Source: Gammaproteobacteria bacterium (GTDB lineage Bacteria; Pseudomonadota; Gammaproteobacteria; Steroidobacterales; GCA-2729495). Taken from it: a stretch of DNA of 43,573 nucleotides. This document shows, piece by piece, positions 19,312 to 34,502 of the stretch. A program made the translations under genes and the position numbers. The stretch covers positions 1 to 43,573 of the forward strand of contig JADZBS010000054.1 of the NCBI GenBank assembly GCA_020851975.1. The letters run 5' to 3'. Every line of letters starts with the position of its first letter. Position 1 is the stretch's first letter. Below the pieces are notes generated by a model. The model made no database searches, was not told where the DNA came from, and worked only from the letters and a program-made list of their open reading frames with translations.

Positions 19312-19317
19312 ATTATA
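19312..19317 (-). promoter_or_regulatory. -10 box for DUF1820-purL
   Basis: TATAAT on the minus strand, with CCCAAC at the expected -35 position (19335-19340), is the only promoter-like sequence in the 19249-19472 divergent gap. The gap holds nothing else I can identify; no PurR-type operator was recognised. Confidence 0.35.
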
Positions 19318-19472
19318 GCCCATGCATCCCGGCCGTTGGGCTGGCGGGCCCGGGGAGAACTGTGAACCAGACGGCGGCGCCCCTGCAGCCGCAAGGCCAT
19401 CATGGGCGAGCGGAAATTGGGTATCGCGCCGACTGCCCGACGGGGGTGCGCCGGCCATGCCCGGGAACGACC

Positions 19473-20687: not shown

Positions 20688-20754
20688 CGCCGCCGGACAA
20701 CGCAGCCTGCCGCCGCCACCGCGCCCGGCGGTTCTCCTCTACAATGGCGGCGCG

Positions 20755-20982
20755 ATGACACTCGACGAACTCAAGCCCGGCCAGCAGGCCACGATCACGC
20801 GCATCGAGGGCGACGGACCGCTGGTGCAGCGGCTCATGGCGCTCGGTCTCCTGGAAGGCTCCGACGTCGCGATGATCCGCCGCGCCCTCGGTGGCGACCC
20901 GGTGGAAGTCCAGGTGATGGGCTACGCGCTGTCGCTGCGGCGCGAGGAAGCCCGGCGCGTCGAGGTCCGGCTCGGCCCATGA
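20755..20982 (+). CDS. feoA: Ferrous iron transport protein A
   Basis: The 75-residue SH3-like cytoplasmic protein supports FeoB. Signature segments are LDELKPGQQATITRI, LMALGLLEGSDV and the C-terminal VMGYALSLRREEA. A TACAAT box (20740-20745) ends only 9 nt before the ATG and there is no clear Shine-Dalgarno, so the mRNA may be leaderless or nearly so. It overlaps feoB by four bases (ATGA). No Fur box was recognised. Confidence 0.92.
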   Translation: MTLDELKPGQQATITRIEGDGPLVQRLMALGLLEGSDVAMIRRALGGDPVEVQVMGYALSLRREEARRVEVRLGP

Positions 20983-23186
20983 GCACGCCGGCGCCGGCCG
21001 GAGCACCCGCGCGCCCCGCCGCGGCCCCTGCCCCGCACAGCGCCCCGGTGATTGCCGTCATCGGCAATCCCAACACCGGCAAGAGCACGCTCTTCAACGC
21101 CCTCACCGGATTGCGGCAGAAGACCGCCAACTATCCCGGTGTCACCGTCGAGCGGCACACCGGAACCATCGAACTCGCCCGCCGCGAGGTGAGCCTCGTC
21201 GACCTGCCCGGCACCTACTCGCTAGCGGCCCGCTCGCCCGACGAGATGGTCGCCATCGACGTGCTGCTCGGCCATGTCGAGGATCTCGCCCCGCCCCGCG
21301 CCGTGCTCGTGGTGGTGGACGCCACCAACCTGCGACGCAACCTGTTTCTCGCCACCCAGCTCGCCGAACTCGGCCTGCCGCTGGTGATCGCGCTCAACAT
21401 GCTGGACGTCGCCGCCGCCGCCGGCGTGCAGATCGACGTGGCGCGCCTCGCCGCCCGGCTCGAATGCGCCGTCGTGCCGGTGGTGGCCACCAGCGGCGAG
21501 GGCATCGCGGAGCTGCGCGCGGCGCTCGCCACCGCCATCGACCAGCCTCCGCGCGAGCGTCTCGTGGTGCTGCCCGACGTGCACCGCGCAGCCGTGGAAC
21601 TCGGGGCACGGCTCGTCGCCGCCGGGCATAACCTCTCCGCCTACGAGGTCGAGCGCGCACTGATCGACGCCGGCGGCGTTGCCGAGCGGCGCTTCGAGTA
21701 CGCCACCAGCCCGGAGCTCATGACCGAGCTCGCCGAGCTGCGCATGCGGCTCAGCACCGGCAGTTCGCTCGCCGCCATGGAAGCTCGCAGCCGTTACGAC
21801 CTCATCAACGGCATCGTCGGCGAGGTCGAGCAGCGGACCCCGCCGCGCGCGACATTTCGCGAGCAGATCGACCGCGTCACCAACCATCCGGTGGTCGGCT
21901 CGGTGCTCTTCGTGCTGGTGATGGGGCTGGTGTTCCAGGCCGTGTTCTCGTGGGCCACGCCGCTCATGGACCTCATCGACACAGCCACCACGGCGCTCGG
22001 CGAAGCCGTGCGCGCCGCGCTGCCGCCGGGCGCCCTCGCCAGCCTGCTGGTCGACGGTGCCATCGCCGGCGTCGGCAGCGTGGTCATCTTCCTGCCACAG
22101 ATCCTGATCCTCTTCGCCTTCATCATCCTGCTCGAGGACACCGGCTACATGCCGCGCGTGGCCTTCCTCATCGACCGGTTGATGCGCCTGTGCGGCCTGT
22201 CCGGCCAGTCCTTCATCCCGATGCTGTCGAGCTTCGCCTGCGCCGTGCCGGGCATCATGGCCACGCGCGTCATCCCCGAGCGGCGCGACCGGCTCGCCAC
22301 GATCCTCGCCGCCCCGTTCATGACCTGCTCGGCACGCCTGCCCGTGTATGCGCTCCTGATCGGCGCCTTCGTGCCCGAGCGGCACTACCTCGCCGGTCTC
22401 GTCAGTCTCCAGGGCCTGGTGCTGCTCGCGCTCTACCTGCTCGGCATCGTCGCCGGCGTGTTCACGGCACTCCTCCTGAAGCGCACCGCGCTGCGTGGCC
22501 CCACGCCCACCTTCCTGATCGAGCTGCCGCCGTACCGCCTGCCCCACTGGCGCTCCGTCCTGCTGCGCCTGCTCGAGCGCGGCCGGGTCTTTCTGGTGCG
22601 GGCCGGCACCGTCATCTTCAGCGTCGCCGTCGTCATCTGGGCGCTCCTGTACTTCCCGCAGTCGCAGGCCACGGCCGAGCGCTTCGATGCCGAACGCGCC
22701 CGCGCCGAAGCCACGCTCGGCGCAGCGGCGCTCGACCAGGAGCTGCGGCGCATCGACAACGCCGAGAGTGCCGTCCGCCTCGAGGAGAGCTATCTCGGCC
22801 GCATCGGCCGTTTCGTCGCCCCGGTCTTCGCCCCGCTCGGCTGGGACTGGAAGGTGTCGGCTGCCGTCATCGCCGGGTTCCCGGCGCGCGAGGTGGTCGT
22901 CGCCGTCCTCGGTACCATCTACGCCGTCGGCGAGGACGTCACCGAGGAGGATGCCGATCTCGTCGAGCGGCTGCGCACGGCCACCTGGCCGGATGGCCGG
23001 CTCGTCTTCACGCTGCCGATGGCGATCGGGCTGCTCATTTTCTATGCCTTCTGCCTGCAGTGCGCGGCCACCATCGTCATGATCCGCCGTGAGACCAACA
23101 GTTGGGGCTGGGCGGGCTTCGCCTGGGTGTACATGACCGGCATGGGCTACGCCGGCGCGCTGCTCGCCTACCAGCTCGGCTCGTGA
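20979..23186 (+). CDS. feoB: Ferrous iron transporter FeoB
   Basis: FeoB is the inner-membrane Fe(II) transporter with an N-terminal G domain. The 735-residue chain has G1 GNPNTGKST near residue 31, the switch region NYPGVTVERHTG, G3 DLPGTYSLAA and G4 NMLD. The membrane part includes the Gate motifs MLSSFACAVPGIMATR and PFMTCSARLPVYALL, with conserved cysteines, followed by further helices ending in FYAFCLQCAATIVMIRRET. Residues 1-22 are an Ala/Pro-rich extension. Transcription is coupled to feoA, and a small gene follows. Confidence 0.96.
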   Translation: MSTPAPAGAPARPAAAPAPHSAPVIAVIGNPNTGKSTLFNALTGLRQKTANYPGVTVERHTGTIELARREVSLVDLPGTYSLAARSPDEMVAIDVLLGHVEDLAPPRAVLVVVDATNLRRNLFLATQLAELGLPLVIALNMLDVAAAAGVQIDVARLAARLECAVVPVVATSGEGIAELRAALATAIDQPPRERLVVLPDVHRAAVELGARLVAAGHNLSAYEVERALIDAGGVAERRFEYATSPELMTELAELRMRLSTGSSLAAMEARSRYDLINGIVGEVEQRTPPRATFREQIDRVTNHPVVGSVLFVLVMGLVFQAVFSWATPLMDLIDTATTALGEAVRAALPPGALASLLVDGAIAGVGSVVIFLPQILILFAFIILLEDTGYMPRVAFLIDRLMRLCGLSGQSFIPMLSSFACAVPGIMATRVIPERRDRLATILAAPFMTCSARLPVYALLIGAFVPERHYLAGLVSLQGLVLLALYLLGIVAGVFTALLLKRTALRGPTPTFLIELPPYRLPHWRSVLLRLLERGRVFLVRAGTVIFSVAVVIWALLYFPQSQATAERFDAERARAEATLGAAALDQELRRIDNAESAVRLEESYLGRIGRFVAPVFAPLGWDWKVSAAVIAGFPAREVVVAVLGTIYAVGEDVTEEDADLVERLRTATWPDGRLVFTLPMAIGLLIFYAFCLQCAATIVMIRRETNSWGWAGFAWVYMTGMGYAGALLAYQLGS

Positions 23187-23194
23187 ATCACGCC

Positions 23195-23374
23195 ATGAGT
23201 GACACAGACCTCCAGGAACTCCTCGCCCTTGGCGTCGTCGTCCTTGTCGTCGCCCTCACGCTCTGGCGCCGGGCCCGACGCAGGCGCGCCGGCAAGGCCG
23301 GGTGCAGCGGCTGCGACTCGAAGGCAGCGCGCCCCTCGGGCGAATCGCCGTTGCGCTTCCACCGCCGCCGCTGA
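23195..23374 (+). CDS. Small FeoB-associated Cys-containing membrane protein
   Basis: The 59-residue product has one N-terminal membrane helix (residues about 8-25, LLALGVVVLVVALTLWRR), a stretch of arginines expected on the cytoplasmic side, and a CSGCDSK motif. This is the layout of the FeoB-associated Cys-rich membrane family and occupies the position of feoC, but it is not the winged-helix FeoC. It begins 8 bp after feoB. The following 25 bp contain a weak CGGGC/GCCCG hairpin without a T-run, before the convergent P450 gene. Confidence 0.75.
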   Translation: MSDTDLQELLALGVVVLVVALTLWRRARRRRAGKAGCSGCDSKAARPSGESPLRFHRRR

Positions 23375-23399: not shown

Positions 23400-24587
23400 T
23401 CAGCCGGCCCAGCGATAGCTGACCGGCATGTCGTGATAGCCCTTGAACATCACGCCTTCGCGTGGCGCCGGATCGCGCGCCGGGCGGATGTCCGCCAGCC
23501 GGCTCATCAGCTTCTGGAAGGCGATGCGCCCCTCGAGCCGGGCGAGCGCGTGCCCGGCGCAGAGGTAGCGACCGGCGGCGAAACTCAGGTTGTCACGCGC
23601 GTTGGCGCGCCCGAGATCGAGGACGTCCGGCGACTCGAAATGCAGCGGGTCGCGGTTGGCCGCGGCGATGGAGAGCATCAGGTGCGTGCCCTCGGCGATC
23701 GCCGTATCGTCGATGCGCACGTCGCGGGCTGCCTGCCTGAACAGCACGTACAGCGGCGGGTCGTAGCGCAGGAACTCCTCCACGGCGTTCTCGGTAAGCC
23801 CGGGCTCCTCGCGCAGGCGGCGCATGGCCTCGGGATGGCGCATCAGCGCGAGCAGCCCGTTGCCGAGCAGGTGCGTGGTGGTCTCGTGGCCGGCGATGAG
23901 CAGCGTGATGATGGCCCACACCACCTCGTCGCGGGTGAGCTTGTGCTCGCGCTCGTTGCGGACCAGCAGGCTCAGCAGGTCATCGCCCGGTGACTGCTCC
24001 CTCGCCCTGACCACGGCCGAGAGATAGTCGAACAAGGCCGTGGCTCCGGCCGTCGCGCGGGCAAATTCCTCGGGCGTGGCCACGATCTCGAGCCCTGCCA
24101 GCATTGCCCCGGAGCCTTCCCGCAGCAGGTTCTCCTCCTCGGTGGGGATGCCCAGCATGTGGCAGATCACCGTGACCGGCAGCGGCATGGCGAAATCGGC
24201 GATGAAGTCGCCGCTGTCGCGTTCGCGCATGCGCCCGATCAGCGCCTCGCAGGTCCGGTCCACGAAGTCCGTCAGCGCCTCGACCCGCTTGCGGGAGAAC
24301 GCCGGCATGATGGCGTGGCGGAAGCGCGTGTGGTCGGGGGGATTCATCGAGATCATGTTGTTGCGCCCGAAGTCGCGAAACGGTCCCTCGGGCTTGCGGC
24401 CGACCGACCACTCCGTCGGCCGACGCACGTCGTGGCTGGTCAGCGCCCAGGCGACATCGGCGTGCCGGCAGAGCAGCACGCCGCCATCGGCGAGCGGTGT
24501 CACGGGCTGTTCGCGCAGCAGCCGGCTGAACAGCCCGATGGCGCCGTAGCGAAACTCCGGGGCGGTGGGATCGACGGTGATGGTCAT
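23400..24587 (-). CDS. Cytochrome P450
   Basis: The 395-residue soluble P450 shows the I-helix oxygen-activation motif LLIAGHETTTHLL, the K-helix ExxR in VEEFLRYDPPLY and the heme-ligand loop FAAGRYLCAGHALARLEG. The loop has alanine where FGxG usually stands, but the cysteine is present. No membrane anchor and no ferredoxin or reductase gene is nearby, so electrons must come from elsewhere. It is the last of eight same-strand genes, 47 bp after the amidohydrolase, which suggests action on the same substrate family as the corrinoid methyltransferase. Which substrate cannot be told; oxidative demethylation or hydroxylation are both possible. Confidence 0.92.
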   Translation of the reverse strand: MTITVDPTAPEFRYGAIGLFSRLLREQPVTPLADGGVLLCRHADVAWALTSHDVRRPTEWSVGRKPEGPFRDFGRNNMISMNPPDHTRFRHAIMPAFSRKRVEALTDFVDRTCEALIGRMRERDSGDFIADFAMPLPVTVICHMLGIPTEEENLLREGSGAMLAGLEIVATPEEFARATAGATALFDYLSAVVRAREQSPGDDLLSLLVRNEREHKLTRDEVVWAIITLLIAGHETTTHLLGNGLLALMRHPEAMRRLREEPGLTENAVEEFLRYDPPLYVLFRQAARDVRIDDTAIAEGTHLMLSIAAANRDPLHFESPDVLDLGRANARDNLSFAAGRYLCAGHALARLEGRIAFQKLMSRLADIRPARDPAPREGVMFKGYHDMPVSYRWAG

Positions 24588-24634
24588 GCTTGCGGTCCTC
24601 TCCGGCCCTGATGGCCATGAATCGTGACGCGAAC

Positions 24635-25882
24635 TCAGTGCCCGCCGGTCGCGCACCCGAACGTTGCCAGCGGGTCTCCCGCCACCAGCACCAGGTCGCC
24701 CAGCAGCACCTCGGGCCTGTCGAAGGGCGATTGTGCCAGCAGGCAGAACTCGGCCGGCGCGCCCGCGACGAGCACCGGCCAGTCCTGGCCCCAGTGCTGG
24801 CGCGGTGTGGCGGTCGCCGAGGCGAGCACGCGATCCATGGGCAAACCGGCCGCGCCGAACAAGGATAGCTCCTGGAGGAGTCCGCGTCCGTGCCCGACAC
24901 CCGGGCTGCCGGCGTCGGAACCCGCGATCAGGCGCACGCCGAGCTGATCGGCGAGCGCGATGCGGTCGAGATGATCGCCGACGATGCGCCCGAGATTCGC
25001 CACGGTGGCCGCTGGCCAGCCGGCGTACTGCGGATGCTTCCACTGGAAATGCACCGGCGCCACCGTGGGGACCCAGGCGATGCCCTCCCCGGCCATGGCC
25101 CGCAGCGCCTCGGCGGTCATGAAGTAGCCATGCTCGATCGAGTCGACGCCGGCCGCGATGGCCAGCTCGATCCCCTCCGCTCCGCTGCAGTGCGCGAAAA
25201 CGGGCCGGCCCTGGCCATGGGCGCAGTCGATCATTTGCCTGAGCGTACGCACGTCGAACTGCGGTCCCTGCGGCACGGCGCCGTGTTCGAAATCGACGAT
25301 GCCGGTCAGGAGAATCTTGACGTCGTCGGCCGACTGCGCCACCCGGTCGACAGCGGCGACGGCCTCGTCCGGCGTGGCCACGTCGATCGCCATGAACCGG
25401 CCGTAGCCGCCGGCGCGGCGGATCGCCGGGCCGGGCGAGCGGATTGCCGGCCAGAACTCCGCCACGTCGCCACGCCGCCGGCGCATCTCGTGGTTGATGC
25501 CGTGCCGGTCGCCGGCGTCGCGGATCAGCGTGATGCCGTGCGCACGTGCGTGCCGGATGTTGGCCTCGGCGATGGCCGCCAGGCCCGCGAAGTCCGCGCC
25601 CTGGCCGGCACTGCGGTCCGCCGCCTGCCTCGCCGCCCCGCCCAGGAACAGGTGGCAGTGCGCCTCGACGAGGCCGGGCAGGAGGAAGGCCGCCGTGTCG
25701 GGCACGGCCGTCGCCACCGGCGGTGCCACGGCGGCCGGCGGCGTTTCGTGCGGGGACGTGATCGCGACGATGCGTCCCTGCTGCAGGTGAAACGCGTACG
25801 GGCCGGCGTCGTGATGACGGCGGCCGCAGAAATAGCTGCCGGCGACGATCGTGCGGGATGACGCGGCGGACGGGCCAGGCAT
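24635..25882 (-). CDS. Amidohydrolase-family metal-dependent hydrolase
   Basis: The 415-residue protein has the amidohydrolase TIM-barrel layout: metal ligands in LVEAHCHLFLGG near residue 75, a candidate carbamylated lysine in DVKILL near 190, histidines in FAHCSGAEG and SIEHGYFM, and the aspartate in IAGSDAGSPG. It resembles imidazolonepropionase/prolidase-like members that hydrolyse amide, ester or ring C-N bonds. It starts 8 bp after the methyl-THF methyltransferase gene, so it is part of the operon. A role in releasing or opening the methylated substrate is inference. Confidence 0.85.
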   Translation of the reverse strand: MPGPSAASSRTIVAGSYFCGRRHHDAGPYAFHLQQGRIVAITSPHETPPAAVAPPVATAVPDTAAFLLPGLVEAHCHLFLGGAARQAADRSAGQGADFAGLAAIAEANIRHARAHGITLIRDAGDRHGINHEMRRRRGDVAEFWPAIRSPGPAIRRAGGYGRFMAIDVATPDEAVAAVDRVAQSADDVKILLTGIVDFEHGAVPQGPQFDVRTLRQMIDCAHGQGRPVFAHCSGAEGIELAIAAGVDSIEHGYFMTAEALRAMAGEGIAWVPTVAPVHFQWKHPQYAGWPAATVANLGRIVGDHLDRIALADQLGVRLIAGSDAGSPGVGHGRGLLQELSLFGAAGLPMDRVLASATATPRQHWGQDWPVLVAGAPAEFCLLAQSPFDRPEVLLGDLVLVAGDPLATFGCATGGH

Positions 25883-25890
25883 GACGGGGC

Positions 25891-26793
25891 TCAGGAGCGT
25901 TGCAGCTTCAGCAAGCGGCGCAGGGCATCACGGCCCGTCAGGGCGATGATCTCGCGGAAGGCCACCAGCAGCGGATCGTCGTCCGGCAGCAGCCGGTAGT
26001 CGCGCCAGGGCGTGCCGATGATCATGTCGAGGCCACGCGCCACGGCCAGCGTCAGGAATGCGTTCTCGAGACCCTCCCGGAGCGCCAGCCCGCCACGCGT
26101 GGTCGCCGGCAGTTGCTGGGCGATGTTGCTGAGGCCGCCGCAGAGATGCACACCGGCGAGATCCGGATCGCAGCCGATCCGCTCCACGGCATCGAGCGCC
26201 GCCCGGGTCGCCCCTTCGGTGTCCGCCGCGAGCGCGCCGATCGAGACATCGACGATGACATCATCCGGCACGAGGCCGGACTCGCGGGTCAGGCGCGCGA
26301 GACAGCGCCGGGCCGTGGCGTGGATCTCTTCGGCGGTCCGGTTCTGGCGCGCCTCGCCGTTCTCCATCCGCTCCGAGGCCATGACGATGACCCGCGCCGG
26401 ACAGCCACCGGCACGGACCGGCAGGTGCCAGCGCGCTTCGGTGATCGAGTTGATGATGGGCCTGCGCCCGCGGGCCTGGTCGGCGTCGTAGGCCTCGAGG
26501 CAGACCTGCTGCACGCGGACGTCGGGCGAATCGAAGCACAGCGGCAGGTCGACGACCGCCTGGACGGCACGGATCAGGGTGACGAGGAATTCCGGCGCCG
26601 TGGCAACCTGCGGCCCGGCATTGATGTTGAGATACGCGGCCCCGGCATCGGCCTGGCGCCGCGCCAGCGCCTGGATGCCGGCGATATCGCCGGTCTCGAA
26701 GAGCGCCCGGGTGCTGCGAAAGCCGGGATTGATCCGTTCACCGATGATCGCCAGGCCGTGGATTGCCAAACCGGAACCTTCCTTTCCTGCCAT
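25891..26793 (-). CDS. Methyltetrahydrofolate:corrinoid methyltransferase (pterin-binding family)
   Basis: The 300-residue protein belongs to the dihydropteroate-synthase-like pterin-binding family that includes AcsE/MeTr and the folate domain of MetH. Visible elements are IIGERINPGF at the start, AAYLNINAG, LCFDSPD, PIINSIT, DVSIGAL and the C-terminal GLDMIIGTPWRDYRLL. It would move a methyl group between THF and the cobalamin of the adjacent corrinoid protein. In a catabolic demethylase it would be the second methyltransferase; in a biosynthetic methylation it would load the corrinoid. It lies 9 bp after the corrinoid reactivator gene. Confidence 0.88.
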   Translation of the reverse strand: MAGKEGSGLAIHGLAIIGERINPGFRSTRALFETGDIAGIQALARRQADAGAAYLNINAGPQVATAPEFLVTLIRAVQAVVDLPLCFDSPDVRVQQVCLEAYDADQARGRRPIINSITEARWHLPVRAGGCPARVIVMASERMENGEARQNRTAEEIHATARRCLARLTRESGLVPDDVIVDVSIGALAADTEGATRAALDAVERIGCDPDLAGVHLCGGLSNIAQQLPATTRGGLALREGLENAFLTLAVARGLDMIIGTPWRDYRLLPDDDPLLVAFREIIALTGRDALRRLLKLQRS

Positions 26794-26802
26794 CGCTGCG
26801 AA

Positions 26803-28638
26803 TCAGGGGAAGTTGATCCGGCGGACGAACTGGCGCTGGAACGCGGCGCTGCCCGCCATGCCGACGTGCTGCGCCTCACGGGCGATCTCCGCGGCCCGTG
26901 CCCGATGCGGATGCGACAGCGCCGCCAGCCGCACGCCGAGACCGGCCGCACCGCCGATCTGCCGGAACCGCCCGATCGGCAGGTCGGGCAGCATGCCGAT
27001 CGCGATGGCGCTTTCCATGGAAATGTAACTGCCGAAGGCGCCGGCCACGACGACGTGTTCGATGGCCTGTTCCCCGATCGCCGCCGCCTGCAGCAGCATG
27101 TCGATGCCGCTGCGGATCGCCGCCTTCGCCAGTTGCACGGCCCGCACGTCGCTCTGCGTGAAAACGATTCCCGGCGCCGAGCGCTCCTCTTCGTCGACCA
27201 GCACGAACTCCCGGCTGCAATCGGTGTCGCGGACCCGCGCATGACCCGGCTGCAGGCGGCCGCGATGATTGAGGATGCCCGCCTTCAGCAGCGCGGCGGT
27301 GACATCGAGGACACCGGAGCCGCAGAGTCCCTCCGGCTCGGCCGCGTCGATGGTGCCGAGCTCGAGCGTGCCGTCGCGGATCGCCACCCGTTCGATCGCC
27401 CCCGGCGCCGCCTGCATGCCCCAGGTGATCTCGCCGCCCTCGAGCGCCGGCCCCGAGGGACAGGACACGGTCAGGATGCGGCCCTCGTGCCGCAGGGAGA
27501 TCTCCGTGTTGGTGCCGATGTCGAGCAGCAGCACGGTGCCGCGCAGGTCCTGCGCTTCGAGCGCGAGCAGTGCGGCGACATGATCGCCGCCGACGAAGCC
27601 GGCGACGCCCGGGAACAGGTGCACGCCGGCGGCCGGCGCCGCGAAGAGGCGCAGGTCGCGGGCCCGGAGATCCACCGCCTCGCGCTGCACGGGAGCAAAG
27701 GGAGCACGCGCCAGCCCATCCACGGGCAGGCCGAGCAGGAAGTGCTGCATGGCCGAGTTGCCGGCGATCACCACGTCGCAGATGTCGGTCGCGACGACGT
27801 CCGCCTTCCGGCACAGGGTGGCGGTCAACTGGTTGATGCCGTCGATCGCCAGGCGCTGCAGGTCCTGCAGGCAGCCGGCGTCGCGCACGGCGTGATTCAG
27901 CCGCGTGACGATGTCGGCGCCGAGCGTGACCTGCGGGTTGCTGAGCCCGGCCTGGTACAGCGCCGAGGTGCGCCCCTTGCGCAGGTCGACCAGGAAGGCG
28001 CCGATGCTGGTGGTGCCGAGATCGACGGCGAGCGCCAGGGCACGGTGGCGGGCCGGCAGCACGTTGACCAGCTCGCCGAGGCGCACGGCGGCGAGCAGCC
28101 GCTCCTGACCCGTCCGGGCCAGTGCCCAGGCTGCACGCACGGCCTCCGGATGCGCCGTGCGACAGCGCGCCACGCCGCCATGGTTGATCGCCGCGATCAG
28201 CCGGTCATCGAAACCGCGCGCCGGGTCCTGCGCCTCACCGTCAAGCCGGATGCGCCAGGTGCGCACCGTCGGATCGGGCGCAATCCTGACGTCGCCCTGC
28301 TCCAGGCTGCGCACGGCGTGCACGGCCGACGAGCGCACCGGCACGAAGACGGTGCAGCCCTCGCGCGGCCAGATCTGGCAGGCACGCCGCCAGCCGTCGG
28401 CCAGCAGCTTCTGCGACAGCAGATGGCGATCGGCCATGGTCGGCTCTGGAACCGGCCCGCCGACGACATGCACGAGGCAGGAGCGGCAGGTGCCGTTGCC
28501 CGAGCAGGAACTCGACAGCGGCACGGCACCGCGACGCGCACAGTCGAGCACCGACTCTCCGTCGAGAATGTCGAGCGCCCGGCCGGCAGGCCGGAACGTG
28601 ACCAGCCGCGACGGCTCACCCGCAGGCGAGGACGTCAT
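26803..28638 (-). CDS. Reductive activator of corrinoid proteins (ferredoxin + ASKHA, DUF4445)
   Basis: The 611-residue protein repairs corrinoid cofactors that slip to inactive Co(II), using ATP and low-potential electrons. Residues about 10-95 are a plant-type [2Fe-2S] ferredoxin domain (CSGNGTCRSC and a fourth cysteine in RRACQIW). After a linker come ASKHA-type ATPase motifs: ALAVDLGTTSIGAFLVDL near 222, LLLDIGTNTEISL near 388, GLCGSGVLDV and VVVAGAFGSYI. This matches the RACo layout. The closest named relatives are in acetogens and other corrinoid methyltransferase users. ATG at 28638 overlaps the preceding gene by 23 bp. Confidence 0.9.
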   Translation of the reverse strand: MTSSPAGEPSRLVTFRPAGRALDILDGESVLDCARRGAVPLSSSCSGNGTCRSCLVHVVGGPVPEPTMADRHLLSQKLLADGWRRACQIWPREGCTVFVPVRSSAVHAVRSLEQGDVRIAPDPTVRTWRIRLDGEAQDPARGFDDRLIAAINHGGVARCRTAHPEAVRAAWALARTGQERLLAAVRLGELVNVLPARHRALALAVDLGTTSIGAFLVDLRKGRTSALYQAGLSNPQVTLGADIVTRLNHAVRDAGCLQDLQRLAIDGINQLTATLCRKADVVATDICDVVIAGNSAMQHFLLGLPVDGLARAPFAPVQREAVDLRARDLRLFAAPAAGVHLFPGVAGFVGGDHVAALLALEAQDLRGTVLLLDIGTNTEISLRHEGRILTVSCPSGPALEGGEITWGMQAAPGAIERVAIRDGTLELGTIDAAEPEGLCGSGVLDVTAALLKAGILNHRGRLQPGHARVRDTDCSREFVLVDEEERSAPGIVFTQSDVRAVQLAKAAIRSGIDMLLQAAAIGEQAIEHVVVAGAFGSYISMESAIAIGMLPDLPIGRFRQIGGAAGLGVRLAALSHPHRARAAEIAREAQHVGMAGSAAFQRQFVRRINFP

Positions 28639-29341
28639 GCACGGCTCCGGCCTCGTGATCGGATCGCAGGCGACAGCCGGCCCGGCTGCGACAGTCGCGA
28701 CAGGACCGGTCACGCCGCGGGCGGCGGATGCGCGGCCCGACGAGCGCCAGCGCCGTCGCCGTCTTGAGCGGTGACATGACGCCGCCCGCCGCGAGCCCGA
28801 CGCCGATCCGGTCGGCGCCGGCGAGCTGCAACACCGCCGCCTGCGCGCCCAGTGCCAGCGCCCCGTCCCCCGGCGCCAGCGCCCTGCCGATGCCGAGCCC
28901 GCGCGCGGCGAACTCGTGCCGCAGCTCTGCGAACAGGCGCTCGCCGAGCCGCATCACCAGCAGGCTCGCGATCTCGTCGAGCACCAGGGCCTGCAGCCCG
29001 CGGCGATCGCGAAACCGTTGCGCCACGGCCTGCGCAATGCCGGGCCCGAGCGACCAGGCCGCCGCCAGCACCTGTTGCGCCCTGGCCGCCTGCGCCACCG
29101 GTCGTTGCAGCACCAGCGTGCTGCCGTCGTCGAGATCGAGGCGGCGCGCATCGGCGCTGCGGACCGCGGTGCAACCGTAGCTCGCGCGGGGCTCGACCAG
29201 CCGCTCCCGTTGCAGCTCGCCCAGGAGGGCCGTCACCATCGTCTCCGCCGGTCGCGCCGTGAAGGCGCGGCCGGTCAGCCGCAGCCGCCGCAGGACATCG
29301 GCCGGCGAGATCTCCAGGTCAGGCTGCTCGACGATGGTCAC
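28616..29341 (-). CDS. MetH-activation-domain-like protein with Cys-rich tail
   Basis: The 241-residue product resembles proteins annotated as vitamin B12-dependent methionine synthase activation-domain-like, found beside corrinoid methyltransferases. Residues about 80-200 carry the helical core (AWSLGPGIAQAVAQRF, LDEIASLLVMRLGERL). The C-terminus has SCRDCRSRAGC, a C-x2-C-x5-C motif that could bind iron-sulfur or zinc. It probably docks on the corrinoid protein during reductive activation (inference). The start taken is GTG at 29341, three bases after the methyltransferase stop, with a weak Shine-Dalgarno; an internal Met near residue 35 is a less likely alternative. Its 3' end overlaps the RACo gene by 23 bp. 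Confidence 0.72.
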   Translation of the reverse strand: MTIVEQPDLEISPADVLRRLRLTGRAFTARPAETMVTALLGELQRERLVEPRASYGCTAVRSADARRLDLDDGSTLVLQRPVAQAARAQQVLAAAWSLGPGIAQAVAQRFRDRRGLQALVLDEIASLLVMRLGERLFAELRHEFAARGLGIGRALAPGDGALALGAQAAVLQLAGADRIGVGLAAGGVMSPLKTATALALVGPRIRRPRRDRSCRDCRSRAGCRLRSDHEAGAVHDVLACG

Positions 29342-29344
29342 GGT

Positions 29345-30595
29345 TCAGTAGACCCCGTGCGCCCGGGCCGCGTCGAACATGGCCTTGACGTTGGCCGGGC
29401 GCGCCTCGCGCGGAATGCCTGCCGCGCTGCCGTCCAGGATGAAGGCGCCCTCCTTGCCGACGGTCGCCACCAGCGTCTTCACCTGCTCCTCGACCTCCGT
29501 CGGGGAGCCGGCGATCAGCAGCGATCCCGACATGCCGCCGCGGATGCAGATGGTATTGCCGAACACCGCGCGGGCGCGCACCAGGTCGGTATTCTCGAAC
29601 TGGTAGGTGCAGGTTCCCGGCGGGACATCGGCGATGATCTCCAGCCGGCTGGTGCACTCGCCCTCGAAGAATGGCATCGGCGTGAGGCCGGCATCGATGA
29701 CCATCTGGATCATCCGGCGCAGTTGCGGCCAGTAGAAGGTGCGGAACTGCTTCGGCGACATGAACCCGTCGATGCCCCAGTGCAGCGGGATGAACACCAC
29801 CTTGTTCGGCAGCGTCCGGAACAGGTCGACGGCCCGGCGGCTGAAGGTATTCAGGATCATGTCGATGGCCGCGAGCAGTTCGTCCGGCCGGCGCATCATG
29901 TCGAGCATGCCGCCTTTGGCACCGCGCATGAAGTCGACGATGATGTCGAACGGGCAGAGCATCGCGCCGCCGCGGTGCGCCGGGAAGCCGAGCCCGGCCA
30001 TGCGCTGGATGAACGCGCGCTCCCGCGCGATCGTCTCCAGCGCGCACTTGCCCGCCTCGTGCAGCGTGTCCATCGCACGCTTCATCTCCTCCGTGCCGAA
30101 GGCGGCCACGTTGATCGCGGCCCCCGTGTAGACGAGGCTCGGCGGATACGGAAAGGCCGCGAGGGCTTCCAGGTTCTTCGCGGTGCGCGGCAGCATCCGG
30201 GTCAGCCAGAACCAGGAGGGGTCGGCGATCAGTTCGCGGTATTCGTCCGCGCGCATGATCTCCCGGTCGAGGTACTGGAACGGATCATCGGCGCCGATGC
30301 GGCTGCCGGGCCACTCCATCGGCTGGTAATCGATGAGGTCGAGCTGGCGGCCGATCAGGTTGCGCGTGTGCTGCTGCTCGAAGGCGTCCGGCTCGAAATC
30401 GAGGATCACCTTCTCGACGGCGCGTTCGAGCTTGTCGCCGTCGTAGACGGTTTCCGCCAGCGTGTAGCCGGCATAGCGGGCGTGGAAATCAGCGGTAAAG
30501 AACGGCGCCGGCACGCGGTCTGGCACCCGTCCGGCCATCGCCTCCTGCATGCGCCGCTGGCGTTCGGCATAGAGTTCCTGGGGTGACTTGTCCAT
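29345..30595 (-). CDS. UroD-family corrinoid methyltransferase
   Basis: The 416-residue protein has the uroporphyrinogen-decarboxylase-like TIM barrel used by MtaA, MtbA and CmuA-type methyltransferases. Supporting features are the opening GRVPDRVPAPFFTADF, RGAKGGMLDMMRRPDELL, the central VFIPLHWGIDGFM and the late MPFFEGECTSRLE plus NTICIRGGM. The zinc-binding HxC motif of MtaA/MtbA is not seen; the same place reads EGEC. This is not hemE: the context is corrinoid-dependent, with the corrinoid protein gene 3 bp upstream. It is expected to transfer a methyl group between the unknown substrate and cobalamin. The substrate cannot be read from sequence. Confidence 0.85.
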   Translation of the reverse strand: MDKSPQELYAERQRRMQEAMAGRVPDRVPAPFFTADFHARYAGYTLAETVYDGDKLERAVEKVILDFEPDAFEQQHTRNLIGRQLDLIDYQPMEWPGSRIGADDPFQYLDREIMRADEYRELIADPSWFWLTRMLPRTAKNLEALAAFPYPPSLVYTGAAINVAAFGTEEMKRAMDTLHEAGKCALETIARERAFIQRMAGLGFPAHRGGAMLCPFDIIVDFMRGAKGGMLDMMRRPDELLAAIDMILNTFSRRAVDLFRTLPNKVVFIPLHWGIDGFMSPKQFRTFYWPQLRRMIQMVIDAGLTPMPFFEGECTSRLEIIADVPPGTCTYQFENTDLVRARAVFGNTICIRGGMSGSLLIAGSPTEVEEQVKTLVATVGKEGAFILDGSAAGIPREARPANVKAMFDAARAHGVY

Positions 30596-30598
30596 CGT

Positions 30599-31249
30599 CT
30601 ACGCCGCCGTCCAGGAGTTGCACAGCGAGACCGCGTCCATGGCATTGCGGCCGAAGGCATCGGCCCGGGTGAACTCCCGGACCCGATCGTCGACCTGCCC
30701 GCCGCCGATCATGATCTTGAACCCGTCGCGGGACCGCGCCTCCTGGAAGGCCTCGATGATCTCCTTCATGGAGTCGAAGGCGAGCGTCAGGAAACCGCTC
30801 AGGGCGACGACGGACGGCTTGTGCGCATCGATGGCCGCCAGGAAGCGCTGCGCCGGCACGTCCACGCCGAGGTCAACCACCTCGTAGCCGGCGATCTCCA
30901 GCATGAAGGTGACGATGTTCTTGCCGATGTCGTGCAGGTCGCCCTTCACCGTGCCGATGACGACGCAGGCGCGATGTGCCGCGGCACCGCCGGCGCCGCG
31001 CTCGCCGATCAACGGCCGCGCCATGCCGCTGATCTCGGTGAGCATCTCGCCGGCCAGCATCAGCTCGGTCAGGAAATATTCCTCGGCCTCGTAGCGGGCA
31101 CCGACGATCGTCATCGCCTGGCGGCAGAGGTCGAGCATTCGCATCGGGTCAAAGCCGCTGTCGAGCATCTGGCGGGCCAGGGCCAGCGCCGCCTCCTCCT
31201 CCATGTCGGCCAGAAGTCCGATCAGCCGTTGGTCGTCATCGTTGCTCAT
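30599..31249 (-). CDS. Corrinoid (B12-binding) methyl-carrier protein
   Basis: The 216-residue protein is an MtaC/MtbC-type corrinoid protein. Residues about 1-85 form the N-terminal helical cap (ARQMLDSGFDPMRMLDLC, LTELMLAGEML). The Rossmann B12-binding domain follows, with the base-off motif DLHDIGKN near residue 105, the SGFLT segment and the GGGQVDD loop near the C-terminus. The histidine of DLHDIG would ligate cobalt. ATG at 31249 is chosen because AGGTG lies 5 nt upstream; a GTG at 31255 is possible. It lies 21 bp after the MetV-MetF gene and 3 bp before the methyltransferase gene. Confidence 0.93.
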   Translation of the reverse strand: MSNDDDQRLIGLLADMEEEAALALARQMLDSGFDPMRMLDLCRQAMTIVGARYEAEEYFLTELMLAGEMLTEISGMARPLIGERGAGGAAAHRACVVIGTVKGDLHDIGKNIVTFMLEIAGYEVVDLGVDVPAQRFLAAIDAHKPSVVALSGFLTLAFDSMKEIIEAFQEARSRDGFKIMIGGGQVDDRVREFTRADAFGRNAMDAVSLCNSWTAA

Positions 31250-31270
31250 CACCACACCTGTGAGGATCGT

Positions 31271-32731
31271 TCATGAATCGGAACACTGCGCAGACCGCGC
31301 CACGCCGGTGCCGGCCTTCCGGCGGGCCGGCATCGCCTCGCCCCACGCGCCGGCCTGGCGCCCGGCCAGGAGGCCGCTGCGCTCGACGAGTTCGCTGAGG
31401 CGATGCGCCTGCCGGTGCATCATCAGGTGCACGCCGGCCACGCCGGGGATCGCCCGCACCTGGTCGAGCAGTTCCAGGCAGATGTCCATGCCGGTCTTCG
31501 CCGGATCCGATGAATGTTCCAGCCGGCGGATCAGGCTGTCCGGAATGTTCGCACCCGCGACGTGTCGCTGGATCCAGGCGGCGGCCCGCGCCGAGGACAG
31601 GAACCCCAGGCCCACCAGGATGTGGCAGCGTTCGTGCAGCCCGAGATCACGGACCTCCCGCATGAAGGCCTCGAAGCGCGGCACGTCGAAGCAGTACTGC
31701 GTCTGCACGAAACGCGCGCCGGCCGCCACCTTGCGGGCCAGGTTCAGGGCGCGCGCCTCGAGCGGTTCCGCGAGCGGGCTGATCGTGGCGCCGACGAACA
31801 GCGGCGGCGCCTCGGCGAGCACCCGTCCGGAACGCAGCCGGCCCTGCGCGGAAATCATCGTGGCGGTCTGGAGCAGCGTCGCGCTGTCGAGTTCGAACAC
31901 CGGCCGGGCCCAGGCGTGATCGCCCTGCCCGATGCCGTCGCCCGTCAGGCACAGCAGGTTGCGCACGCCCAGCGCCGCGGCACCGAGGATGTCCGCCTGC
32001 AGCGCGATGACGTTGCGATCCCGGCAGCAGAGCTGCATGACCGGTTGCAGGCCTTCCCCGATCAGGAGGGCGGCGGCCGCGAGGCTCGACAGGTGGCAGT
32101 TCGCGCCGGGCCCGTCCGGCACATTCACCGCGTCCACGCAGCCCCGGTAGTGCGCGAGGCGCTGCCTGAATTCGTCCCGGACGATCACGTCCGGCGGCGT
32201 CATCTCGGCGGTGACGGCAAAGACCCCACGGCGCAGCAGTCCCTCCAGCGGACTGGCCGGATCGCGCAGGACCGCTTCGGCCGGCGATGAGGTGGCGGCA
32301 TCCTCCTCCGGTGGCGTCGTGTGCAGCCAGGCGGAGCGTCCCTGCCAGTCGTGGCGGCGCGCGGGATGGACGACGGCGAATTCACGACTGCGCTCCTGGA
32401 CCTTCAGCCCGTGCCAGGCTTCGGTCCAGACGCAGCGGCGCGACGGGGCGACCTCGCAGCCGCCGTCGGTGCGCACGCCGCCGCAGGGACCGTTGCGCAT
32501 CCCCTTCGGGCAGCGCATCGGACAGACCATCCCCGTCGCGGGCAGTACGCAGTCGCCGCACATGCGGCAGTCGAAGAGCACGGCCTTGGTCCAGCGCTCG
32601 ACGGCGGTGAAGGGTCGTTCGAGATGCGAGCCCCGGATCGCGGGACCGAGCCGTCGCACGATGCGTTCCACCAGGCCGTAGACCGCGGCGAAGAAGCGCG
32701 GAAATTTCGGTGGCAGGAACGCGAGCGACAT
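31271..32731 (-). CDS. Fused MetV-MetF methylenetetrahydrofolate reductase
   Basis: The 486-residue protein is a fusion. Residues about 50-110 are a MetV-like cysteine-rich domain (CRMCGDC, CPMRCPKGMRNGPCGG, then CEVAP and RRCVW) that can bind a metal or cluster. Residues about 170-460 are a MetF TIM barrel (VFAVTAEMTPPD, MQLCCRDRNVIALQADILG, LLCLTGDGIGQGDHAWARP, FVQTQYCFD). It interconverts methylene-THF and methyl-THF. In acetogens MetV and MetF are separate subunits. It is the first gene of the operon and closes the route between the corrinoid protein and the folate pool. ATG at 32731 is chosen by similarity; a longer frame begins at 32773. Confidence 0.87.
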   Translation of the reverse strand: MSLAFLPPKFPRFFAAVYGLVERIVRRLGPAIRGSHLERPFTAVERWTKAVLFDCRMCGDCVLPATGMVCPMRCPKGMRNGPCGGVRTDGGCEVAPSRRCVWTEAWHGLKVQERSREFAVVHPARRHDWQGRSAWLHTTPPEEDAATSSPAEAVLRDPASPLEGLLRRGVFAVTAEMTPPDVIVRDEFRQRLAHYRGCVDAVNVPDGPGANCHLSSLAAAALLIGEGLQPVMQLCCRDRNVIALQADILGAAALGVRNLLCLTGDGIGQGDHAWARPVFELDSATLLQTATMISAQGRLRSGRVLAEAPPLFVGATISPLAEPLEARALNLARKVAAGARFVQTQYCFDVPRFEAFMREVRDLGLHERCHILVGLGFLSSARAAAWIQRHVAGANIPDSLIRRLEHSSDPAKTGMDICLELLDQVRAIPGVAGVHLMMHRQAHRLSELVERSGLLAGRQAGAWGEAMPARRKAGTGVARSAQCSDS

Positions 32732-32802
32732 CACTGGATCACCCGCCGCCAGCCCGGGATACGTTGGCGCCACCTGTCATGGAACAATCCGGATCCAGGC
32801 CT

Positions 32803-32836
32803 GCCCGATGGCTCAGCGGAAACGCTGAACCAGGGC
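32803..32836 (-). promoter_or_regulatory. Long hairpin at the start of the methyl-transfer operon
   Basis: On the minus strand GCCCTGGTTCAGCG (32823-32836) pairs with CGCTGAGCCA and GGGC (32803-32818) around a TTTC loop, giving a stem of about 14 bp with one G-T pair and a 2-nt bulge. It lies 72-105 nt before the MetV-MetF ATG and overlaps the predicted transcription start. It may be an operator or a 5' mRNA structure. It lacks a T-run and does not match the cobalamin riboswitch features I know. Confidence 0.5.
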
Positions 32837-32837
32837 A

Positions 32838-32865
32838 ACGGTAGCAGCCGTGACCACAATGTCAA
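32838..32865 (-). promoter_or_regulatory. Putative promoter of the corrinoid methyl-transfer operon
   Basis: On the minus strand a perfect TTGACA (32860-32865), a 16-nt spacer and TACCGT (32838-32843) lie just before the hairpin. The predicted start is near 32831, leaving a leader of about 100 nt before the first gene. The def gene ends at 32909, so this is a dedicated promoter. Confidence 0.5.
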
Positions 32866-32908
32866 CCCGGTTGCCGAATGCGACGCTGCCTCCGCCGCCG
32901 GTGCCGGC

Positions 32909-33439
32909 TCAGCGGTGGTAGCGCTCGTACTCCGCGTCGAAGGCGAGCAGCGCCGGGTCGGCGATGCGATCGACGTAGAGCCTGCCATCGAGGTGGTCGA
33001 ACTCGTGCTGGAAGACCGTGGCAGCGAAGCCGCGCAGTTCGAGCGTGGCGGGTGTGCCTGCTCCGTCGAGGCAGTCGATACGCACGTGCCGGGGCCGTTC
33101 GACAAAACCGCGCAGCCCGGGGACCGAGAGGCAGCCTTCCCAGCAGCCGGTGGTAGCCGGGTCGAGGACTTCGACCCGCGGATTGACGAACACGGTGAGC
33201 GGCATGGGCGCGAGGTCCCCGTAGCGCGTCGGCCCGCCGGCGATCTCGATGATGGCCAGGCGCAGCGACTCGCCGACCTGCGGTGCCGCGAGCCCGATGC
33301 CGCCGTAATCGTGCAGCGTGTCGACCATGTCGGCGAGGAGCTGGCGCACGCGCTCGCTGCCGATCTCCGCCGCTGACAGCGGACGGGCGACCTGGCGCAG
33401 GACAGGATGGCCGAGGCGCAGCACGCGACGGATGGTCAT
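32909..33439 (-). CDS. def: Peptide deformylase
   Basis: The 176-residue metallohydrolase removes formyl from the N-terminal Met of new proteins. All three motifs are present: GIGLAAPQVG near 48, EGCLSVPG near 103 and the zinc-binding HEFDHLDG near 147. ATG at 33439 starts the family-like sequence; an upstream in-frame ATG would overlap the divergent oxidoreductase gene. It is not in the common def-fmt arrangement, so a second copy may exist elsewhere. It diverges from the next gene with 43 bp between starts. Confidence 0.94.
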   Translation of the reverse strand: MTIRRVLRLGHPVLRQVARPLSAAEIGSERVRQLLADMVDTLHDYGGIGLAAPQVGESLRLAIIEIAGGPTRYGDLAPMPLTVFVNPRVEVLDPATTGCWEGCLSVPGLRGFVERPRHVRIDCLDGAGTPATLELRGFAATVFQHEFDHLDGRLYVDRIADPALLAFDAEYERYHR

Positions 33440-33482
33440 GGTGCAGAGGATAGCCGACCGGGCCGGCTGCCGCGGTGGCAGA

Positions 33483-34502
33483 ATGGCGACGATGGAGATC
33501 GACATCATCCTGAACGAGTTCGCCTCGCCGCAGGAAGCGGCGGAACTCGGCCTGCTGGCCGAGCGTTACGGCATGCGCGGTGTCTGGTCGAGCAACTACG
33601 GCGGCTCGCGCGACGCCTTCTTCACGCTCTCGCTGCTGGCGCAGCAGTCATCGCGCATCCGCCTGGGGCCGATGGCGGTGAGCCCGGCCGAGCTGCACCC
33701 GTTGAAGATGGCGAACCTGCTGCTGTCCCTGAACGAACTCTCCCGCGGCCGCGCCATGATCATGGTGGGAGGTGGCGGCGCGGTGCTGCAGGCGATGGGC
33801 GGCGGGCGCGATCGCCGCGTGCGCCGCGTGCGCGAGTGCCTGCAGATCCTCAAGGGCACGGCGCCCGATCGTGTCCTGAACTTCCGCGGCGAGATCTACC
33901 AGGTGTGGGGCTACCAGCCGCGGTGGGCCACGGACACCCCGCCACTCGTCTACTACGGCGCCAATCACCCGCAGAGCCGTCGCGTGGCAGCGCAACTCGC
34001 CGACGGGCTCATCACCAGCGACTTCGTGGTGCCGCTCGTGCGCGAGTTCGTGGCGGCGACGCACGCCGAGCTGCGCGCCGCGGGGCGTGACCCGGCGACG
34101 TTTCGCATCGGCAATTTCTGGGCCTGGCACATCCGCGAGGACGCGCGCGCCTCCATGGCCGAGGCACGCCGCGAACTCATGCTGCGCGGCTGGCTGGGCG
34201 AACAGTACTTCGCACCCTTCCTCGACCCGGACGAACTCGCCCTGATGCGCGCCCACGAGCGCGACTTCCTGAACGCCTTCCTGCGCCGTAGCGACGTGAT
34301 CGAGAACGTGCCGGCAGGGCTCGTCGACAAGATGATCCGCCACATCGCCTTCGCCGGCGGGCTCGACCGGATCGAGTCCGCCATCGAGACGCTGCGTGCC
34401 TTCGCCGCCGCGGGCCTCACCGAGATCGCGCTGCGCGTGCACGACGAGCCGGCAGCGGCGATCCGCCTGATCGGCGAGCGCGTCCTGCCGGCGTTGCGAT
34501 GA
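33483..34502 (+). CDS. LLM-class (MER-like) flavin/F420 oxidoreductase
   Basis: The 339-residue protein is a luciferase-like TIM barrel of the F420-dependent MER/LLM group: EAAELGLLAERYGMRGVW, RIRLGPMAVSPAELHPLKMA, LSRGRAMIMVGGGG and PPLVYYGANHPQSRRVAAQ. Whether it uses FMN or F420 cannot be decided from sequence. ATG at 33483 was taken; ATG at 33492 in the same frame is equally possible. The gene overlaps the metallophosphatase by four bases (ATGA), so the two are co-translated. Confidence 0.87.
   Translation: MATMEIDIILNEFASPQEAAELGLLAERYGMRGVWSSNYGGSRDAFFTLSLLAQQSSRIRLGPMAVSPAELHPLKMANLLLSLNELSRGRAMIMVGGGGAVLQAMGGGRDRRVRRVRECLQILKGTAPDRVLNFRGEIYQVWGYQPRWATDTPPLVYYGANHPQSRRVAAQLADGLITSDFVVPLVREFVAATHAELRAAGRDPATFRIGNFWAWHIREDARASMAEARRELMLRGWLGEQYFAPFLDPDELALMRAHERDFLNAFLRRSDVIENVPAGLVDKMIRHIAFAGGLDRIESAIETLRAFAAAGLTEIALRVHDEPAAAIRLIGERVLPALR

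What the first reader, a model, noticed from the sequence alone, without database searches (positions are those of the whole stretch)
23400..32731. Eight-gene cobalamin-dependent methyl-transfer operon ending in an amidohydrolase and a P450
All parts of a corrinoid methyl-transfer route are encoded in one tight minus-strand run: MetV-MetF, corrinoid protein, UroD-family methyltransferase, MetH-activation-like protein, RACo-type reactivator and methyl-THF methyltransferase. Gaps are 21, 3, 3, -23, 9 and 8 bp, then 47 bp before the P450. Such systems are best known from acetogens, methanogens and chloromethane users. Here it sits in what looks like an aerobic or facultative gammaproteobacterium and is joined to an oxygen-dependent P450 and an amidohydrolase. 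That suggests a composite pathway for an unknown methylated (or to-be-methylated) compound. The gene content recalls, from memory, the cobalamin-dependent estrogen methylation genes (emtABCD) of Denitratisoma and steroid degraders; demethylation of methoxy, methylthio or methylamine compounds is equally open. Direction of methyl flow cannot be decided from sequence.
Basis: partly seen in the sequence, partly recalled or inferred. Interest (0 to 1): 0.85.

Follow-up and report, generated by a model that had tools for sequence, protein, structure and literature searches.

The report
B12 methyl-removal cassette plus neighbouring P450
This is a seven-gene, vitamin-B12-based cassette that probably strips methyl groups off some methylated compound and burns them; similar cassettes sit in other bacteria, in some of them beside an oxygen-using enzyme for the same job, while the P450 next to it here looks like an older neighbour and not a part.

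Summary
The eight genes and spacings are as reported. Seven (MetV-MetF, corrinoid protein, UroD-type methyltransferase, MetH-activation-like protein, RACo, methyl-THF methyltransferase, amidohydrolase) form a conserved cassette. Of 79 relative loci, 15 show the full order of the six genes scored and 33 show RACo-MeTr-amidohydrolase. The amidohydrolase is a core part of this type and travels with MetV-MetF. The P450 is probably not part: in two congeners, one without the cassette, it lies between the same FeoB and deformylase flanks, with cysJI where the window has the cassette. The UroD protein fails HemE and MtaA/CmuA cut-offs and is not of EmtA's reported family; its nearest solved relative is CdmB, whose published kin are O-demethylases. 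In six relative loci the cassette starts 5-22 bp after a vanA- or vanB-like gene, so the wider family is probably an O-demethylation system of proteobacteria. The window's clade lies outside that branch, has changed many conserved residues, and its genus has no LigB match, so its substrate is open. Best reading: demethylation into tetrahydrofolate, then oxidation; a new variant of a known kind. The amidohydrolase's reaction is unknown; hydrolysis of a folate-bound C1 unit is a testable guess.

The parts
31271..32731 (-). MetV-MetF fusion (DUF5981 + methylenetetrahydrofolate reductase), 486 aa
   Evidence: Pfam MTHFR 1.5e-28, DUF5981 1.2e-25; second MTHFR beside a canonical MetF at G000:C8; congeners G029, G143, G153 have no MetV match at 1e-10
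30599..31249 (-). corrinoid protein (methyl carrier), DxHxxG = DLHDIG
   Evidence: B12-binding 3.8e-23 and B12-binding_2 1.3e-10; motif at residue 104
29345..30595 (-). UroD-superfamily methyltransferase I (substrate:corrinoid protein), 416 aa
   Evidence: URO-D 2.6e-19; profile best solved relative CdmB 9rui 9.8e-48 against 9.8e-9 for UroD 3cyv; trees
28616..29341 (-). MetH-activation-domain-like protein with C-terminal Cys cluster (C214, C217, C223), 241 aa
   Evidence: profile A3 against 1j6r E 5e-8; alignment
26803..28638 (-). RACo-type corrinoid activator with N-terminal 2Fe-2S domain
   Evidence: RACo_C_ter 1.2e-74, Raco_middle 3.3e-45, Fer2 9.5e-10
25891..26793 (-). methylcorrinoid:tetrahydrofolate methyltransferase (MT II), 300 aa
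   Evidence: Pterin_bind 8.7e-15; NF005719 methyl-THF:corrinoid/Fe-S protein methyltransferase 1.3e-34, 119.6 bits, below its cut-off of 259
24635..25882 (-). amidohydrolase, core member of the cassette, metal-site residues complete
   Evidence: Amidohydro_1 3.7e-14; invariant H75, H77, K189, H231, H251, D323 in 33 sequences; RACo-MeTr-AmdH in 33 of 79 loci
23400..24587 (-). cytochrome P450, neighbour and probably not part of the cassette
   Evidence: p450 1.4e-30; same FeoB/PDF-flanked locus in G029 and G082, the latter without the cassette
32909..33439 (-). peptide deformylase, right flank of the cassette
   Evidence: homologues in L098 and L099 at 70-72%; conserved flank; the name is from the sequence, not from a family search
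20979..23186 (+). FeoB, left flank shared with congeners
   Evidence: 78-80% to L098, L099, L101; blastn W 19078-23293 = L098 17998-13771; the name is from the sequence, not from a family search

Best explanation
A seven-gene corrinoid demethylase cassette. RACo and the MetH-activation-like protein keep the corrinoid protein in the cob(I) state. The UroD-type methyltransferase moves a methyl group from a methylated substrate to it. The pterin-binding methyltransferase passes the methyl to tetrahydrofolate. MetV-MetF oxidises methyl-THF to methylene-THF, feeding the folate C1 pool, with PurU available in this genome for release of formate. The amidohydrolase is a fixed part of this branch; the guess is hydrolysis of a folate-bound C1 unit or of a product of the demethylation. 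The substrate class in the wider family is most likely methoxylated aromatics; the substrate of the window's own clade is open. The P450 is a resident neighbour beside which the cassette came to lie. Shown here: gene content, conserved order, synteny, residues, tree. Inferred: every catalytic step, the direction, the substrate.
For: Domain content. Conserved order across proteobacteria, one Desulfuromonadales and one Terriglobia assembly. CdmB as nearest solved relative, placed with O-demethylases by PMC13222342. A VanA-like gene in 12 of 79 loci and a VanB-like reductase in 6; VanB-like 10-22 bp upstream of the MetVF open frame in L037, L045, L052, L082 and VanA-like 5 bp upstream in L035, L041 (one representative of each cluster was scanned with Pfam, the others joined by blastp). 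Canonical MetF elsewhere in the genome, so the cassette copy is extra. AmdH and MetVF travel together: both 24, neither 9, MetVF only 3, AmdH only 5 of 41 cassettes. PurU present. P450 synteny.
Against: No activity data. The window UroD clade lies outside the clade that holds all 12 VanA-linked loci (AU p 0.022, groups named after seeing the first tree) and has changed 22 columns that are at least 85% conserved in the other 47 sequences. The genus has no LigB match (0 of 10), and none of the flanking genes scanned near its cassettes looks like aromatic catabolism (not every flanking gene was scanned). MetV is absent from three of the four cassette-bearing genomes of the genus, and the G153 cassette has no MetVF in the 8 kb upstream (a divergent MTHFR lies at its C29). 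The P450 orthologue occurs in 4 of 4 cassette-bearing and 1 of 6 other genus genomes, a weak hint of a functional tie.
Confidence: 0.66

Rival explanations
1. The cassette runs as a methylase: methyl-THF made by MetF is passed through the corrinoid protein to an acceptor, by analogy with cobalamin-dependent estrogen methylation.
For: Methyl transfers of this kind can run both ways (general knowledge; PMC7448270 reports the reverse reaction for estrogens); MetF canonically makes methyl-THF; that paper reports corrinoid-mediated methylation of estrogens in denitrifiers (passages).
Against: EmtA is described as MtmB-like and the donor as SAM, while this protein is URO-D family. A canonical MetF already serves biosynthesis. 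Some relatives sit directly after vanA- or vanB-like genes, a demethylase. MetV-MetF and AmdH travel together.
Confidence: 0.12
2. The window cassette demethylates something other than an aryl methyl ether (for example an N- or S-methyl compound or a halomethane), having diverged from an O-demethylase ancestor.
For: Stem branch of the genus clade about 1.25 changes per column, outside the VanA-linked clade; W37F, H98S/G, G99R, W310F, W332Q and other changes against the rest of the family; no LigB in the genus. CdmB shows that this superfamily can work on haloalkanes (PMC13222342, sections 8 and 9 read).
Against: A long branch alone does not show a new substrate; invariant H272, W273, D276, E311, R317, E334 are kept; two loci of the neighbouring UroD branch lie near LigB (L028, L029), so aromatics are possible there too; no substrate-specific neighbour gene was found.
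Confidence: 0.4
3. The amidohydrolase acts on the substrate side, for instance opening an amide, ester or lactone of the methylated compound, and has nothing to do with folate C1 units.
For: Nearest solved relatives are prolidase-like, carboxypeptidase-like and ochratoxinase-like amidohydrolases (names). It was not scored in 12 of 41 cassettes: eight of another UroD branch (L019, L025, L028, L029, L031, L033, L040, L048) and four of the large branch (L034, L046, L061 with a fragment, L087). It also co-occurs with PurU (38 of 45 against 2 of 16 genomes), which would make it redundant as a formate-releasing enzyme.
Against: It is conserved across two distant UroD branches with presumably different substrates, and it travels with MetVF. 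The raw association with lack of formate-THF ligase (ligase in 10 of 45 genomes with and 12 of 16 without the amidohydrolase, Fisher 5e-4) points to C1 metabolism, but only 3 independent pairs exist, so it is not significant on the tree.
Confidence: 0.45
4. The P450 is a true eighth member and makes the substrate or removes the product.
For: Co-directional, 47 bp from the amidohydrolase; orthologue in all four cassette-bearing genomes of the genus and in one of six others.
Against: Found with the FeoB and PDF flanks and no cassette between in G029 and in cassette-less G082; in G153 it lies on another contig with other flanks; no P450 adjoins the cassette in the DNA held for 79 loci; the best solved matches are TamI, an unnamed P450 hydroxylase and CYP267B1, with CYP107-type enzymes further down.
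Confidence: 0.12

Closest known systems
CdmBCA chloromethane dehalogenase of Acetobacterium dehalogenans (PMC13222342; abstract, sections 8 and 9 and passages seen)
   Same: UroD-superfamily MT I, separate corrinoid protein, MT II to tetrahydrofolate, activating enzyme; CdmB 9rui is the best solved match (E 9.8e-48)
   Different: in the parts seen, no MetV-MetF, activation-domain protein or amidohydrolase is named in the cdm cluster; anaerobic acetogen host; long branch between the CdmB stretches and this family
Mto (Methermicoccus) and Mtv/Odm/Vdm O-demethylases of methoxylated aromatics (PMC8630106 and PMC13222342, passages seen)
   Same: four-part MT I / CP / MT II / activator logic; some relatives of this cassette adjoin vanAB-like genes
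Estrogen methyltransferase EmtABCD (PMC7448270, abstract and passages seen)
   Same: corrinoid-dependent, proteobacterial, RACE-like activator nearby
   Different: EmtA is MtmB-like, donor SAM, opposite direction; EmtC is reported without similarity to known proteins
Type 1 mlp gene clusters (PMC10418091, passages seen)
   Same: UroD-superfamily methyltransferases, corrinoid protein, Ram/RACE activator
   Different: three MtaA-like proteins and no H4folate methyltransferase in the clusters described; the O-demethylases OdmB and VdmB are the outgroup there

Membership tests
UroD-superfamily corrinoid methyltransferase I (CdmB / O-demethylase branch) | profile similarity to CdmB well above that to HemE | tested here: met
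   9.8e-48 against 9.8e-9
UroD-superfamily corrinoid methyltransferase I (CdmB / O-demethylase branch) | MT I encoded with CP, MT II and activator | tested here: met
UroD-superfamily corrinoid methyltransferase I (CdmB / O-demethylase branch) | groups with OdmB, VdmB, MtvB, MtoB in a tree | not tested
   those sequences could not be fetched here
UroD-superfamily corrinoid methyltransferase I (CdmB / O-demethylase branch) | demethylates methoxylated aromatics or haloalkanes | not testable with these tools
   no activity data; neighbours suggest methoxyaromatics for part of the wider family only
VanA-linked proteobacterial clade (defined in this work) | UroD protein groups with that clade | tested here: not met
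   58-row clade excludes the window clade; joining them is rejected, AU p 0.022
HemE uroporphyrinogen decarboxylase | passes TIGR01464 cut-off | tested here: not met
   26.7 bits against 302.95
MtaA/CmuA family | passes TIGR01463 cut-off | tested here: not met
   25.7 bits against 235.4
EmtABCD estrogen methyltransferase | MtmB-like catalytic subunit | tested here: not met
   URO-D family; EmtA's family taken from PMC7448270, sequence not aligned
EmtABCD estrogen methyltransferase | SAM as donor | not testable with these tools
   a methyl-THF-type methyltransferase is present
Amidohydrolase superfamily | HxH, Lys, His, His, Asp metal ligands (recalled) | tested here: met
   invariant H75, H77, K189, H231, H251, D323
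RACo corrinoid activators | 2Fe-2S, middle and C-terminal ASKHA domains | tested here: met

The most novel reading that the evidence does not exclude
A proteobacterial module, in part of its range joined with vanAB into one operon, gives facultative bacteria both an oxygen-using and a B12-using way to remove the same O-methyl group. Its amidohydrolase is a so far undescribed hydrolase of folate-bound C1 units that replaces energy-conserving formate-THF ligase. The window's genus has turned the module to a new methylated substrate.
Probability: 0.27. Interest if true: 0.82.

Novelty: new variant of a known kind. Interest (0 to 1): 0.6.

Why it matters
In the papers seen here, corrinoid O-demethylation is described for acetogens, methanogens and other anaerobes. 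This cassette and its relatives put it into many proteobacterial genomes, in some of them directly after genes like those of the aerobic vanillate demethylase, which would change how lignin-derived methoxy groups are thought to be consumed at oxic-anoxic boundaries. It also hands over a concrete unknown, a conserved amidohydrolase in a one-carbon route, that a single enzyme assay can resolve.

Tried and rejected
P450 as an O-demethylase counterpart of VanAB: the 60 best solved matches shown (of 611) begin with TamI and other P450 hydroxylases and name no O-demethylase, and synteny explains its place. AmdH as the only formate-release enzyme: this genome and its three cassette-bearing congeners also have PurU. 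AmdH against FTHFS: strong raw association, not significant on the tree. Mobile-element edges: no inverted repeats in 24300-25000 or 32500-33100; one 17-nt imperfect direct repeat in the latter, probably chance. Foreign base composition: cassette GC 0.709 against 0.707 left and 0.678 right, so no sign of recent entry. Promoter or terminator in 32600-33000: none found by consensus. Structure comparison: one UroD job was accepted but not finished and never collected; the amidohydrolase job was never accepted; no fold evidence is used. Literature: no paper on such a proteobacterial vanAB-corrinoid operon was seen in the listings (20 of 34 papers listed); only one search had the word amidohydrolase among its terms, and it found no paper. 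Subscription papers are largely not held there.

A zinc motif for O-demethylase MT I and the MtaA zinc ligands came to mind from memory only and are not used as tests.
Full report
Observation. The corrinoid-protein and RACo gaps rest on ATG starts at 31249 and 28638; the longest ORFs begin a little further upstream. Pfam assigns MTHFR with DUF5981 (MetV), two B12-binding domains, URO-D, the three RACo regions, Pterin_bind, Amidohydro_1 and p450. The fourth gene has no Pfam hit alone, but a 14-member profile of it finds the solved MetH activation domain 1j6r at 5e-8 and whole methionine synthases more weakly.

Where it lies. The window is contig C54 of a 2.85 Mb assembly in 150 contigs, 92.2% complete. 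In a search of 196 genomes of the order, 5 have the UroD protein at 1e-20: this one, three of the same genus (G029, G153, and G143 split over two contigs) and one of another family, G079 at 39%. The amidohydrolase follows the methyl-THF methyltransferase in all four relatives. No P450 follows it in G029 and G079, nor in the 383 bp left on the G143 contig; the G153 contig ends inside the amidohydrolase.

A conserved cassette. A scan of 84,980 species genomes with two short peptide patterns found 116 relatives, of which the best 80 gave 79 loci. Most are labelled or placed as alpha-, beta- or gammaproteobacteria, with a few from Desulfuromonadales and Myxococcota and one Terriglobia. In 15 of 79 the full order MetVF-CP-UroD-RACo-MeTr-AmdH is visible (the activation-domain protein was not scored in this count); in 28 the order from CP onward; in 33 RACo-MeTr-AmdH. 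Many loci are cut by contig ends, so these are lower bounds; several genomes give more than one locus. Among 41 cassettes with RACo, MeTr and at least 1.3 kb downstream, AmdH and MetVF are both present in 24, both missing in 9, MetVF alone in 3 and AmdH alone in 5; L058, L083 and L090 of the last five begin within 250 bp of the contig end upstream. One of the nine, L061, has an amidohydrolase fragment below the score used. The amidohydrolase is thus a regular component and goes with the oxidative folate gene.

The P450 is a neighbour. Its orthologue, 71-79% identical where whole, occurs in the four cassette-bearing genomes of the genus and in G082, which has no cassette: five of ten genus genomes. 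In G143 it is in pieces on three contigs; one of these contigs, C40, is 98-100% identical to G029 in its proteins and may be foreign to that assembly. In G029 and G082 it lies between FHA-FeoB on one side and deformylase, luciferase-like protein and phosphatase on the other, the same flanks as in the window; in G143 the FeoB side is seen; in G153 the flanks differ. Window 19078-23293, 23407-24588 and 32892-35028 align in order with L098 (G029) at 76-79%. Between P450 and deformylase G029 holds sulfite reductase cysJI, where the window holds the cassette. In G029 the cassette lies about 0.77 Mb away, between a YidC-like gene and an EAL protein, and in G153 beside and divergent from enolase. In the DNA held for 79 loci from elsewhere no P450 adjoins the cassette; L075 and L086 have a weak match on the other strand. 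The co-occurrence of 4 of 4 against 1 of 6 genus genomes leaves a small chance of a functional tie. Cassette GC equals its surroundings and it is about as diverged from G029 (76.5%) as the flanks are (76-79%), so it is not a recent arrival in the genus, although its place differs.

What the UroD protein is. It fails the cut-offs for HemE and for MtaA/CmuA by a wide margin. With a four-sequence profile the best solved match is CdmB of Acetobacterium dehalogenans, 9.8e-48, against 9.8e-9 for the best UroD. The CdmB paper places CdmB with the O-demethylases MtvB, OdmB, VdmB and MtoB and reports no zinc in CdmB (PMC13222342, abstract, sections 8 and 9 and passages seen). EmtA, in contrast, is described as MtmB-like with SAM as donor (PMC7448270, abstract and passages), so the estrogen analogy is one of layout and not of family.

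What the family probably does. Gene clusters near the 79 loci include VanA-like proteins in 12 loci and VanB-like reductases in 6, LigB dioxygenase and UbiD in 4 each, with LysR, MarR and GntR regulators and AMP-binding ligases (one representative of each cluster was scanned). All 12 VanA-linked loci fall in the 58-sequence clade named below. In L037, L045, L052 and L082 the MetVF open frame starts 10-22 bp after the VanB-like gene, and in L035 and L041 5 bp after the VanA-like gene (distances are to the longest open frame). That is the layout of one operon holding an oxygen-using and a corrinoid-using demethylase. No paper describing it was seen in the listings.

The window's own clade. The window protein, G029 and G153 form a clade on a long stem (1.25 changes per column) outside the 58-sequence clade that holds the VanA-linked loci; forcing them together is rejected at p-AU 0.022, though the groups were named after seeing the first tree and long branches are in play. 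The clade keeps H272, W273, D276, E311, R317 and E334 but has changed 22 columns that are at least 85% conserved in the other 47 sequences, among them W37F, H98S/G, G99R, W310F and W332Q. The genus has no LigB match (0 of 10) but 2 to 12 VanA_C-type Rieske matches per genome, most at 42-68 bits and one at 124. Two loci of the neighbouring branch, L028 and L029, lie near LigB. A substrate other than vanillate is therefore quite possible, but not shown.

Direction. A canonical MetF is present elsewhere (G000:C8, 317 bits), so the cassette copy (102 bits) is extra; the cassette-bearing congeners also have two, and so does cassette-less G077 with a weak match. MetV-MetF, PurU and vanAB-like linkage in some relatives fit oxidation of a removed methyl group. 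MetV itself is missing from the three congeners, so it is not essential.

The amidohydrolase. Its presumed metal ligands are all invariant in 33 sequences, and its nearest solved relatives bear names such as imidazolonepropionase, Xaa-Pro dipeptidase, arginine carboxypeptidase and ochratoxinase, at 5e-22 or weaker. At 1e-60 its family is in 44 of 67 genomes examined, in 4 of 4 cassette-bearing and 0 of 6 other genus genomes. Formate-THF ligase was found in 2 of 11 and 20 of 50 genomes. Over these 61 genomes it is in 10 of 45 with and 12 of 16 without the amidohydrolase, and PurU in 38 of 45 and 2 of 16 (G230 and G210 adjusted by hand). On the MeTr tree only three independent pairs exist, so this proves nothing by itself. 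Five genomes have the amidohydrolase and neither enzyme; four have none of the three. A folate-C1 hydrolase is a guess worth one assay; the co-occurrence with PurU speaks against its being needed for formate release.

Verdict.

Noticed in passing
L081:9052-21217: Two cassettes in tandem, each with CP-UroD-Act-RACo-MeTr (the first MeTr matches in two pieces), the second followed by AmdH.
   Followed up: no
L055:2759-5296: Two UroD-type genes side by side inside one cassette, 39-40% to the window protein.
   Followed up: no
L007:13465-14421 and L010:1195-2178: In G029 and G143 the cassette's MetF has no MetV part, whereas the window copy is a MetV-MetF fusion.
   Followed up: partly
L098:2229-5679: cysJI sulfite reductase genes occupy the place between P450 and deformylase where the window has the cassette; whether this genome keeps cysJI elsewhere was not checked.
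   Followed up: partly
genus genomes G000, G029, G070, G077, G082, G135, G143, G153, G156, G191: 2 to 12 VanA_C-type Rieske oxygenase matches per genome of 2.4-3.6 Mb, many for such small genomes.
   Followed up: no
genomes G202, G210, G220 (loci L015/L018/L029, L027/L047/L059, L039/L051/L056): Three UroD-type loci in each of these assemblies, suggesting a set of substrates.
   Followed up: no
window 33485-34502: Luciferase-like monooxygenase (PF00296) divergent from the deformylase, conserved in G029 and G082 as part of the resident locus.
   Followed up: no
L102 (G143:C40): Contig nearly identical (98-100% in protein) to G029 although G143 is otherwise more distant; possible foreign contig in that assembly.
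   Followed up: no
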